Shown: one piece after another, positions 42,528 through 45,192 of the stretch
Numbering within the stretch: the first letter of the stretch is position 1
Layout: each line of letters starts with the position of its first letter
Assembly: GCA_903823665.1 (NCBI GenBank)
Contig: CAIJTR010000102.1
Span: 1 to 64,000 of the forward strand
Source of the DNA: an uncultured Rhodospirillales bacterium
Lineage (GTDB): Bacteria; Pseudomonadota; Alphaproteobacteria; Acetobacterales; Acetobacteraceae
Length of the DNA stretch: 64,000 nucleotides
Direction of reading: 5' to 3'
Made by a program: the position numbers and the translations under genes
Notes under the pieces: model-generated
Told to the model about the DNA's origin: nothing
Database searches by the model: none
What the model saw: only the letters and a program-made list of their open reading frames with translations

Positions 42528-43049
42528 ATGTCATTAACTGCATCGACCGCGTCAGCCATGCGTGGTGTTATCGACCAGTCTTTAGCGGGGTCCTCGGCGG
42601 GGGCACCATTGGCCGGCGGCGCACCGCCATTGAATTTTTGCAGCATTTGGCCCGAAGCAAAGCCAATATTACAAGCTCTTGTTGGTATTGCGGCGCTGAT
42701 ACCGGGTGCTGGCGCCGCAGCTGGCACGATATTGTCGTCACTTATCACCGTGGGTGATTCTGTTTTTTCGCAGACTTGCTCGAAGGGCGGTGGAGGTTCA
42801 ACCGGGAACGCACAAGCGGAGGTTCGTTCGCTGATGGAGGGCGGTTTTGCAGCGGCGAACAGCTCGTCCGGCGGCGCAGCACCAGGGACCAATTTTTGCA
42901 CGATTTGGCCAGAGGCGAAACCAATTCTGCAACTCATTTCTGGGATTGTGTCGTTTATCCCAGGCGTTGGCGCAGGTGCCGGACCAATATTGATGGCCCT
43001 TATCGCCGTCGGTGATTCAGTGTTTCAGCAAACTTGCCATGCTGGTTAA
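42528..43049 (+). CDS. Duplicated hydrophobic Cys-flanked secreted-peptide-like protein
   Basis: 173 aa, no family recognised. Two copies of a 47-residue unit lie at C38-C84 and C124-C170, 86 residues apart; by hand alignment 33 of 47 positions are identical. Each unit runs C-x-IWPEAKPILQ, a hydrophobic helix, IPGxGAxAG, a second hydrophobic helix, VGDSVF-x-QTC. Both copies are preceded by a double-glycine site: LAGGAPP (G30-G31) and SSGGAAP (G115-G116), so the leader-plus-core looks duplicated. The form suggests a secreted or membrane-active product, possibly cut at the GG sites, with one disulfide per unit. This is inference. First gene of a three-gene cluster; a hairpin follows. Confidence 0.8.
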   Translation: MSLTASTASAMRGVIDQSLAGSSAGAPLAGGAPPLNFCSIWPEAKPILQALVGIAALIPGAGAAAGTILSSLITVGDSVFSQTCSKGGGGSTGNAQAEVRSLMEGGFAAANSSSGGAAPGTNFCTIWPEAKPILQLISGIVSFIPGVGAGAGPILMALIAVGDSVFQQTCHAG

Positions 43050-43073
43050 GATTAAATAACAGCAGGGTCCGCC

Positions 43074-43126
43074 TGGCAGTGCATGCTCACGAAAATTAGC
43101 ACTGCCATCCTACTGTGAATTTTTTT
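43074..43126 (+). terminator. Attenuator-like terminator between genes 1 and 2 of the cluster
   Basis: Perfect 9-bp stem TGGCAGTGC (43074-43082) / GCACTGCCA (43099-43107), 16-base loop, then T7 at 43120-43126. The gap to the T-run is longer than ideal. Placed 25 bases after the first gene's stop, it would let the small protein be made in excess over the peptidase and third protein. Confidence 0.65.
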
Positions 43127-43264
43127 GAAATATTTTAATGTCATACTTGGATTTTGAAATTAATCACGCTTCCGCATCATCTTCAATTTGAGCAATCTGA
43201 AAATTTTCTTTTTAAAAAATTGGCTTGCGGTTGGTCATGGCGTCGCAGAGAGGTTTTCGGCAAA

Positions 43265-43885
43265 ATGCGCAATACGTTTCTTTTTCCGTTGGCTGTCGCT
43301 GCGAAGCCCATGCCTGTTCGCGCTCCCTTGCCAGGCGGCGCGCCGCCGACGTCTGGTAAGGTGAGCGTGTCAATTCCACACCAGCAACAACAAAATTGGT
43401 GTTGGGCGGCTGTAAGTGTCGGCATTACAACATTTTATGGTTCAACGACCTGGACGCAGGGCAGCGTGGCACAAGCAGAGCTCGGTTTGAATTGCTGTGC
43501 CGCACCACTGCCCACGTCCTGCGATGTACCTTGGTATTTAGACCGTGCTTTGACGCGAGTGCAAAATTTTGACCATTTTGTCGCTTCTGCGCAGTCATTT
43601 ACTGTTGTGCAGGCTGAGATAAACGCAAACCGCCCGCTCTGCTGCCGAATTCAGTGGTCTATCGGAGGCCATTTTGTTGCTATATCCGGATGGAGTATTA
43701 ATGCGACTGGTGTTGAATTCGTAGACGTTGAAGACCCGGACAACGGTTACAACTTCCAGACCTACACGGATTTCCTAACTTACTACCGGTCTGCAGGTGT
43801 ATGGTCTGATACCTACTTCACTCGAGCAACCGGTGCCGCGGGAACAGGTGGTAGTGGTTCACCGGCCGTGACGCCCACAAGCTAA
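43265..43885 (+). CDS. Papain-like cysteine peptidase with N-terminal GG motif
   Basis: 206 aa. After a leader of about 25 residues ending in PLPGGAPP (G24-G25), the body is a papain-fold protease of the C39/C70-like kind: Q43-x-x-C46 in HQQQQNWCWAAV, H136 in IGGHFVAISGW and D157 in VDVEDPDNGY. Extra Cys (C77, C78, C86, C126, C127) suggest disulfides outside the cytoplasm. It could process the neighbouring protein or act on an outside target, as the AvrRpt2 effector (C70) does. ATG 43265 has AGAGAGG about ten bases before; a TTG at 43154 would add 37 Lys/Arg-rich residues with no homology. The third gene starts 13 bases later. Confidence 0.82.
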   Translation: MRNTFLFPLAVAAKPMPVRAPLPGGAPPTSGKVSVSIPHQQQQNWCWAAVSVGITTFYGSTTWTQGSVAQAELGLNCCAAPLPTSCDVPWYLDRALTRVQNFDHFVASAQSFTVVQAEINANRPLCCRIQWSIGGHFVAISGWSINATGVEFVDVEDPDNGYNFQTYTDFLTYYRSAGVWSDTYFTRATGAAGTGGSGSPAVTPTS

Positions 43886-43898
43886 GGAGCGGACTGAG

Positions 43899-44504
43899 AT
43901 GGCAATCATCACCAATGCCGGCCCGTTAGATGCGATGTCCCTTATTAGCGATGCCTTGTCTCATTATTCAGCCATTGCCGCGCAGCGCAACACACCGTCG
44001 CTTCTGGGTGGTGCGCTACCGAGCCTGAGCGAGCCGGTTCGGGTATATGTGTTGGATATTAAAGACATAGTGCCGGGTTTTGATCTGAATTCCGCCGCGA
44101 AAGCACATGGTTGGCGCTACATCGTTGAATCCGGTGGACAGCACACGGTCATGGCGGACCTGTCGGGTCCAAGGGACGGCACCGCGACGTTTCGGCGCTT
44201 AAATGTAGGCCCAATTGCACAGCAACTCTATAGTGTATGTGAAAAAGCAACGCAATTATTCGACAAGACAGATCCAGAAAACTATGATGTACGTCTATTA
44301 GAAATTCCTGCATTGTATAGGCAGACATTGTGGCTACATGGGCCCATTCATGATCACTTTTTGACATACTGGCCGGCACCTGTTGACGGAGTATTTCATG
44401 AAGACAAGCGATTTCTAGAGGATATAGTACAGCTTGCGGCTAAGACGGTCGCATTGCGATCTCCCGCGCCTCCAGAGCCGGAAACCACTCCCGGCTTACG
44501 ATAA
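43899..44504 (+). CDS. Third protein of the GG-leader cluster, unknown function
   Basis: 201 aa, no family recognised. The N-terminus MAIITNAGPLDAMSLISDAL ... NTPSLLGGALPS is helical and ends in a double glycine (G37-G38), aligned with the GG sites of its two upstream neighbours. After it, EPVRVYVLDIKDIVPGFDLN begins a mixed alpha/beta domain with GWRYIVESGGQHTVMADL. No Cys pair, no membrane helix. AAGGAG stands eleven bases before the ATG, 13 bases after the peptidase stop, so the two are one transcript. It could be a partner, inhibitor or immunity protein; nothing in the sequence decides. Confidence 0.75.
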   Translation: MAIITNAGPLDAMSLISDALSHYSAIAAQRNTPSLLGGALPSLSEPVRVYVLDIKDIVPGFDLNSAAKAHGWRYIVESGGQHTVMADLSGPRDGTATFRRLNVGPIAQQLYSVCEKATQLFDKTDPENYDVRLLEIPALYRQTLWLHGPIHDHFLTYWPAPVDGVFHEDKRFLEDIVQLAAKTVALRSPAPPEPETTPGLR

Positions 44505-44521: not shown

Positions 44522-44637
44522 ATCAGCAATCCGTCGCGCGGCTGTGCTCGGGCATCGCATATTGGTGGCGAGAGCGATGGTGCGACGCTCTTATATAGAG
44601 CACTTCACGTTAATATAACTTGCATTATGTGGATTTT

Positions 44638-44670
44638 TATGTCATAGAAAATAACTCATTCTCTGACATA
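44638..44670. promoter_or_regulatory. Inverted repeat upstream of the 44685 gene
   Basis: TATGTCA-T-AGAA, nine-base spacer, TTCT-C-TGACATA: 11 of 12 positions pair, ending 15 bases before the ATG at 44685. The surroundings are AT-rich with TATAAC-like strings. It looks like an operator or a leader hairpin. Confidence 0.55.
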
Positions 44671-44684
44671 GGAACCCATCCCCC

Positions 44685-45164
44685 ATGCCGTCCACCCGCT
44701 CTCCCGCAACCTTTGATCTGATGGCGCTGCTCTGCCTCATTGGCGGAGCTGTGCGGAGCGCGGGGGAGGCACATTTGCTCATGCAACTGATGGTGATCGG
44801 CACGATGGTGCGGCCTGTTGGGCAGGCGCTGCAGTGTTGGTTGCTCGTTGAGGAGCTTTATGCGGAGAGGGAGTTTTACGAATCCTCCCATGACGACGAG
44901 GATGGCTGGGGTGGGGAGGATGAGTTTCGGCCGGGGCGGATTGAGCGATGCGGGCGGGTGCTGCAATGGCGGCATGTGACGCGGTTTGGATTGGCGGTGC
45001 TGGTGCCTGTTCAGTGGGGTGGCATGATCCGTCTGCCGGAGCCTCTGGTGGCTCAGCTTGGGTGGAGCGTGGCCTCGGCGTTATCGGCTCTGTCTCTTTT
45101 TTGCTTTTTTGCACCCGGTTTGGCGTCGGGGTCGACTGGCGCCCTAATCGTTCTGATATCGTAA
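44685..45164 (+). CDS. Small hydrophobic protein, unknown function
   Basis: 159 aa, unrecognised. There is a hydrophobic N-terminal third (DLMALLCLIGGAVRSAG, LLMQLMVIGTMVRPVG), an acidic middle (YESSHDDEDGWGGEDEF), and two hydrophobic segments near the end (FGLAVLVPVQWGG, ALSALSLFCFFAPGLA). It could be a small membrane protein. The ribosome-binding site is weak (AGGAA 12 bases upstream). The opposite strand is also open, but reads Pro/Arg-rich and is less protein-like. Existence is moderately supported. Confidence 0.45.
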   Translation: MPSTRSPATFDLMALLCLIGGAVRSAGEAHLLMQLMVIGTMVRPVGQALQCWLLVEELYAEREFYESSHDDEDGWGGEDEFRPGRIERCGRVLQWRHVTRFGLAVLVPVQWGGMIRLPEPLVAQLGWSVASALSALSLFCFFAPGLASGSTGALIVLIS

Positions 45165-45192
45165 TAATAATGCTACCTCGTTGGGTTGCTCA

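What the first reader, a model, noticed from the sequence alone, without database searches (positions are those of the whole stretch)
42528..43049. Internally duplicated precursor with two Cys-flanked hydrophobic cores
C38-C84 and C124-C170 are equal-length (47) units, 33 of 47 identical, each with the pattern CxIWPEAKPILQ ... IPGxGAxAG ... VGDSVFxQTC and each preceded by its own GG site. The whole leader-plus-core seems repeated with period 86. The two amphipathic/hydrophobic helices per unit, closed by a Cys pair, recall saposin-like or bacteriocin folds, so two mature peptides from one precursor are possible.
Basis: partly seen in the sequence, partly recalled or inferred. Interest (0 to 1): 0.7.

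Follow-up and report, generated by a model that had tools for sequence, protein, structure and literature searches.

The report
Two-copy hairpin peptide beside papain-like protease
An alphaproteobacterium carries a small foreign three-gene cluster whose first gene encodes two copies of a new family of short, water-repelling peptides with a conserved pair of cysteines, probably a secreted membrane-attacking weapon, next to a protease that carries the same possible cleavage site.

Summary
Repetition of the leader is weak. No Pfam, NCBIfam, PHROGs or PDB family matches convincingly. A profile found single-unit homologues at seven other alphaproteobacterial loci (mostly rhizobia). Both cysteines and a WP..KP...IPGxG...GD signature are invariant in seven aligned units, and the core is under purifying selection. 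Only the window has the unit doubled.

The gene heads a low-GC3 islet (0.49 against 0.69-0.80) with an AvrRpt2-like papain protease (Peptidase_C70, triad intact) and an unknown protein that accompanies C70 proteases elsewhere. All three carry [LIVM]xGGAxP near the N-terminus, a motif found nowhere else in the 64 kb. Four of eight loci have a protease close by.

Best reading: a bacteriocin-like precursor of two disulfide-stapled helical hairpins, working like gallocin A, perhaps matured by the C70 protease. It is not a proven member of a bacteriocin family: PF10439 does not match and the genome lacks a C39 (double-glycine) transporter peptidase. Disulfide, secretion, cleavage and activity are undemonstrated.

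The parts
42528..43049 (+). precursor gene, 173 aa, two Cys-to-Cys hairpin units, no Sec-like signal peptide apparent
   Evidence: open frame, Shine-Dalgarno, homologues, purifying selection
42528..42638 (+). leader 1: predicted helix, then Gly/Ala/Pro linker with LAGGAPP (42609-42629)
   Evidence: sequence; the MSLxA... start resembles the Bradyrhizobium leaders MSLDAKQLAQEI and MPLDATQLAQEI
42639..42779 (+). unit 1, C38-C84
42780..42896 (+). linker or degenerate leader 2 with GGGG (88-91) and SSGGAAP (GG at 42870-42875)
42897..43037 (+). unit 2, C124-C170
43265..43885 (+). papain-like cysteine protease, Peptidase_C70 (AvrRpt2-like), 206 aa from ATG 43265; C46/H136/D154; LPGGAPP at 43328
   Evidence: PF12385 E=1.6e-8, above cut-off; only C70 in the genome; His-Asp spacing 18 as in AvrRpt2 H208-D226 (PMC11475232)
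43899..44504 (+). ORF3, 201 aa, unknown family that accompanies C70 proteases; LLGGALP at 44001; possible inhibitor or immunity protein
   Evidence: relatives directly 3' of C70 genes in L007/L031, L010, L011, L012, L013

Best explanation
The gene encodes a bacteriocin-like precursor. Each 47-residue unit folds as two hydrophobic helices joined at IPGxGA and closed by a disulfide between its two end cysteines; this stapled hairpin inserts into or disturbs membranes of other bacteria. The short helical N-terminus plus Gly/Ala/Pro linker acts as a leader removed at or near the GG site. In this strain the unit has doubled, so one precursor yields two related hairpins, comparable to a two-peptide bacteriocin. 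The neighbouring C70 protease, which carries the same [LIVM]xGGAxP site, is the likely processing enzyme (acting on itself and on the precursor), and ORF3 is a partner of the protease (inhibitor or immunity protein). Shown: units, conservation, invariant Cys pair, foreign islet, shared motif, recurrent C70-ORF3 pair, proteases near half of the homologues. Inferred: disulfide, secretion, cleavage, membrane activity, the role of ORF3.
For: Single-unit homologues in Sinorhizobium, Mesorhizobium, Bradyrhizobium and two further genomes. Both Cys, W4-P5, K8-P9, IPGxG and G39-D40 invariant in seven aligned units. Core more conserved than leader between Sinorhizobium and Mesorhizobium (42/48 against 18/30), dN/dS well under 1. 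Hydropathy peak 1.7-2.2 over 19 residues, net charge -1 to +2. Helix-turn-helix model. [LIVM]xGGAxP occurs in the window only in the three adjacent ORFs. No C39 peptidase in the genome, which leaves the C70 as nearest candidate processor. Neighbours of homologues: S8 subtilase plus amidase in Mesorhizobium, S8 subtilase plus lysozyme-like protein in Bradyrhizobium G1359, nuclease-trypsin fusion near the Sinorhizobium gene. Gallocin A shows that two disulfide-stapled hairpins cut from GG leaders can permeabilise membranes (PMC10100652).
Against: No match to any bacteriocin model. No transporter gene seen beside any copy examined. Four of eight loci lie alone among unrelated genes, without protease or recognisable immunity gene. 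The GG pair is not strictly conserved (LRGAGPADDFC in Sinorhizobium, GSAGAGGDFC in Mesorhizobium). The motif enrichment was noticed after the fact. 215 nt separate the precursor from the C70 gene. AlphaFold confidence is moderate and rests on four sequences.
Confidence: 0.4

Rival explanations
1. A stable tandem-domain protein: two disulfide-closed hairpins on one chain, secreted or periplasmic, never cut apart; the Gly-rich stretches are plain linkers. It could bind lipid or another protein.
For: Gly/Ala/Pro runs suit flexible linkers; GG is not strictly conserved in homologues; no C39 peptidase; cutting only at the GG pairs gives unequal pieces.
Against: Homologues are single units, so no tandem is needed for function; the same [LIVM]xGGAxP motif in the two neighbouring genes is hard to explain as linker.
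Confidence: 0.25
2. An effector or self-killing cassette: the hairpin is a holin-like or pore-forming peptide released or activated by a neighbouring protease, with a wall hydrolase in some lineages, for programmed lysis or for contact-dependent delivery.
For: Proteases near four of eight loci and wall hydrolases beside two of them; caspase-like proteins within 15 kb in Sinorhizobium and Mesorhizobium; a C70 protease is a T6SS effector in Edwardsiella (PMC7991086) and AvrRpt2 is a self-processing T3SS effector (PMC11475232).
Against: An invariant Cys pair at the hairpin ends points to an oxidising compartment rather than the cytoplasm; half of the copies lack such neighbours; no PADLOC model matches the three window proteins. 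T6SS and T3SS genes were not searched for in this genome.
Confidence: 0.2
3. A cytoplasmic or inner-membrane small protein with a structural or regulatory role; the Cys pair binds a metal or is redox-active, and the neighbours are coincidental.
For: No Sec signal apparent; several copies sit among housekeeping genes (uvrB, cobW/cobN).
Against: Patchy distribution (3 of 297 genomes of the Bradyrhizobium family, 1 of 395 of the Mesorhizobium family, no convincing match in 396 relatives of the window's genome) and the low-GC3 islet fit a mobile accessory trait.
Confidence: 0.15

Closest known systems
Gallocin A (GllA1/GllA2, class IIb two-peptide bacteriocin; PMC10100652)
   Same: GG leader; two peptides of about 40-60 aa, each modelled as a two-helix hairpin closed by one disulfide; few charges; a further gene in the operon (immunity in gallocin).
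   Different: Gallocin peptides come from two genes in a Gram-positive host, belong to PF10439 and are exported by an ABC transporter that cuts at GG; here both units are in one chain, there is no PF10439 match and no C39 peptidase in the genome.
Peptidase C70 / AvrRpt2-like proteases (AvrRpt2, EvpQ)
   Same: ORF2: PF12385 above cut-off, Cys-His-Asp in order with the same His-Asp spacing; AvrRpt2 cuts itself.
   Different: ORF2 is 206 aa with a GG-motif N-terminus and sits with a peptide precursor and ORF3; no evidence that it is injected into hosts.
Saposin-like peptides and circular bacteriocins
   Same: Hydrophobic helices and membrane activity, by analogy only.
   Different: Two helices and one Cys pair per unit; no fold match.
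Alpha-hairpinins
   Same: Helix-loop-helix closed by cysteines.
   Different: Alpha-hairpinins have four cysteines in a set motif (PMC11591084, abstract); here two per unit.

Membership tests
Class IIb bacteriocins (PF10439) / gallocin-like | match to PF10439 or another curated bacteriocin model | tested here: not met
   hmmscan against Pfam and NCBIfam, E up to 1: none
Class IIb bacteriocins (PF10439) / gallocin-like | two-helix hairpin with one intramolecular disulfide per peptide | tested here: inconclusive
   hairpin model of moderate confidence and invariant Cys pair; the disulfide itself is not testable here
Class IIb bacteriocins (PF10439) / gallocin-like | membrane permeabilisation by the peptide pair | not testable with these tools
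   needs peptides
Double-glycine (C39-exported) peptides | C39 peptidase-containing ABC transporter in the producer | tested here: not met
   PF03412 absent from the 97.7%-complete genome; the same search rings in 8 of 14 control genomes
Double-glycine (C39-exported) peptides | GG at -2/-1 with a hydrophobic residue at -4 | tested here: inconclusive
   LAGG before unit 1 fits; SSGG before unit 2 does not; GG is absent before the core in the Sinorhizobium homologue
Peptidase C70 (ORF2) | PF12385 match above gathering score | tested here: met
   35 bits against 19
Peptidase C70 (ORF2) | catalytic Cys-His-Asp | tested here: met
   C46, H136, D154; His-Asp spacing 18 as in AvrRpt2 (PMC11475232)
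Peptidase C70 (ORF2) | proteolytic activity and self-processing | not testable with these tools
   only the LPGGAPP motif is seen
Saposin-like | fold match and several disulfides | tested here: not met
   best PDB matches are generic two-helix hairpins, E >= 3; two Cys per unit

The most novel reading that the evidence does not exclude
A new class of protease-processed hairpin peptides in alphaproteobacteria: a papain-like C70 protease cuts itself, its partner ORF3 and the precursor at a shared [LIVM]xGGAxP site to release disulfide-stapled, membrane-active hairpins, replacing the C39 transporter peptidase of classical double-glycine bacteriocins; other lineages use a subtilase or trypsin in its place.
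Probability: 0.17. Interest if true: 0.75.

Novelty: new variant of a known kind. Interest (0 to 1): 0.45.

Why it matters
Small secreted peptides of alphaproteobacteria are poorly catalogued, and this family matches no model in the libraries searched. If it is antibacterial it would add a peptide weapon to nodulating rhizobia and their relatives. If the C70 protease matures it, a protease family known from injected effectors would have a role in precursor processing.

Tried and rejected
Homologue scans of viral contigs found nothing, and tblastn of the C70 protease against phage records found nothing: no phage link. Weak hits in the own genome and relatives are low-complexity matches and were dropped. 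PHROGs hits at E 0.01-0.2 and a PDB sequence hit to lipoyl-domain proteins at E 0.009 were judged chance. A structured RNA between precursor and protease genes was rejected (z = 0.63; no Rfam match). The ORF3 structure prediction failed (pLDDT 36). The empty-site comparison in the genus failed for lack of DNA similarity. A viral scan with the ORF3 alignment was not possible.

Full report
Observation. The ORF 42528-43049 exists as described: 173 aa, units C38-C84 and C124-C170, 33 of 47 identical, 258 nt apart. The similarity of the halves is far beyond shuffles, and silent changes dominate (dN/dS 0.14 to 0.35), so this is an old duplication kept as protein. The leader halves are only marginally alike (4.3% of shuffles reach the score).

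Family. The full-length protein matches nothing in Pfam, NCBIfam or PADLOC, nothing convincing in PHROGs, and its unit profile nothing convincing in the PDB. tblastn on plasmids found a 78-aa single-unit protein on a Sinorhizobium mexicanum plasmid (E 2e-11). A profile of the units found Bradyrhizobium sp. Ai1a-2 and Mesorhizobium intechi, two further genomes in a sample of 297 from the Bradyrhizobium family, and two more in a sample of 157 from the Bradyrhizobium genus, one of them with an apparently frameshifted leader. Of 396 relatives in the window's own family, including seven of the same genus, none has a convincing match. So eight loci are known, with nine units; all but the window have one unit. 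Both cysteines, W4-P5, K8-P9, L11, IPGxG and GD are invariant in the seven units aligned. One copy has a shorter loop (40 residues from Cys to Cys) but keeps both cysteines.

Structure. AlphaFold2 with four sequences gives a leader helix (5-26) and a hairpin of helices 35-54 and 61-83, mean pLDDT 65.5. The PDB search returns only generic two-helix hairpins with E of 3 or more. The helices are hydrophobic (19-residue mean 1.7-2.2) with little charge.

Neighbourhood. The gene lies first in a three-gene islet (42528-44504) whose third-position GC is 0.48-0.51, against 0.69-0.80 in the flanking genes measured. ORF2 is a Peptidase_C70 (PF12385, 1.6e-8), the only one in the genome, with C46/H136/D154 and the AvrRpt2 His-Asp spacing (AvrRpt2 residues from PMC11475232). 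The mechanical start at 43154 (TTG) is probably wrong; ATG 43265 has a better ribosome-binding site. ORF3 follows ORF2 after 13 nt with a strong Shine-Dalgarno. Relatives of ORF3 directly follow C70 genes in an Acetobacteraceae-family relative, Azospirillum, Nocardia, Rhizobium and Burkholderia, so C70 plus ORF3 is an older pair that the peptide gene has joined.

Shared motif. [LIVM]xGGAxP occurs in the whole 64 kb, six frames, only in these three ORFs, near their N-termini (residues 28, 22 and 35). From amino acid composition the three-fold coincidence would be about 1e-9, but the motif was chosen after looking, so that number overstates the case. Similar motifs are seen in a Burkholderia C70 (PLVGGGEP), a Nocardia ORF3 (GLGGSAP) and one peptide homologue (PLGGANP), but not in others. 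The genome has no C39 peptidase, so a classical double-glycine transporter is unlikely; autoprocessing by a C70 protease is known for AvrRpt2 (PMC11475232).

Neighbours of homologues. Mesorhizobium: amidase/M23 protein, S8 subtilase, then the peptide gene. Bradyrhizobium G1359: peptide, a 679-aa lysozyme-like protein (my reading of the sequence; no Pfam hit), S8 subtilase, all on one strand. Sinorhizobium: a nuclease-trypsin fusion about 1.1 kb away on the other strand, caspase-like protein and amidase farther off. The other four (Bradyrhizobium Ai1a-2 and G1394, G1067, G798) lie among unrelated genes. So four of eight loci, the window included, have a protease close by; no control set was run, and this stays a lead.

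Mechanism. I commit to a bacteriocin-like precursor of two stapled hairpins (0.4). Gallocin A is the best functional parallel: GG leaders, two hairpins each with a required disulfide, membrane permeabilisation, immunity gene in the operon (PMC10100652). Membership in that family fails on PF10439 and, for the double-glycine export class, on the C39 transporter. Processing by C70, secretion, oxidation and killing are inferred. Main rivals: an uncut tandem-domain protein (0.25), a protease-linked lytic or effector cassette (0.2), a cytoplasmic or membrane housekeeping role (0.15).

Verdict. Real, conserved and undescribed in the libraries searched, with a good functional analogue but no demonstrated activity: interest 0.45.

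Noticed in passing
window 44608-45171 (ORF 44685-45164, 159 aa): Dispersed multigene family: at least 38 further copies (66-87% nt identity, often exactly 159 aa) on many contigs of the same genome, none at DNA level in seven genomes of the same genus. dN/dS about 0.17-0.73 between copies, so most are selected as protein. No Pfam or NCBIfam match.
   Followed up: partly
L010, L011, L012, L013, L031 (C70 gene and the gene just 3' of it): C70 papain-like protease plus ORF3-family protein is a recurrent gene pair without a family model, from Alphaproteobacteria to Nocardia; some of these C70 proteins carry BTRD1 or other repeats in front. ORF3 may be an inhibitor or immunity protein.
   Followed up: partly
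L016:1-6137 and L017:7000-14000: Sinorhizobium and Mesorhizobium share an island with an amidase (75% identical), a 562-aa hypothetical protein and a DegT/DnrJ-type aminotransferase near the peptide gene, with caspase-like proteins farther away.
   Followed up: no
L009:9302-11293: Fusion of a DNA/RNA non-specific endonuclease and a trypsin domain.
   Followed up: no
L043 (G1359): The peptide gene's leader appears frameshifted after about nine codons: pseudogene, sequencing error or another start.
   Followed up: no
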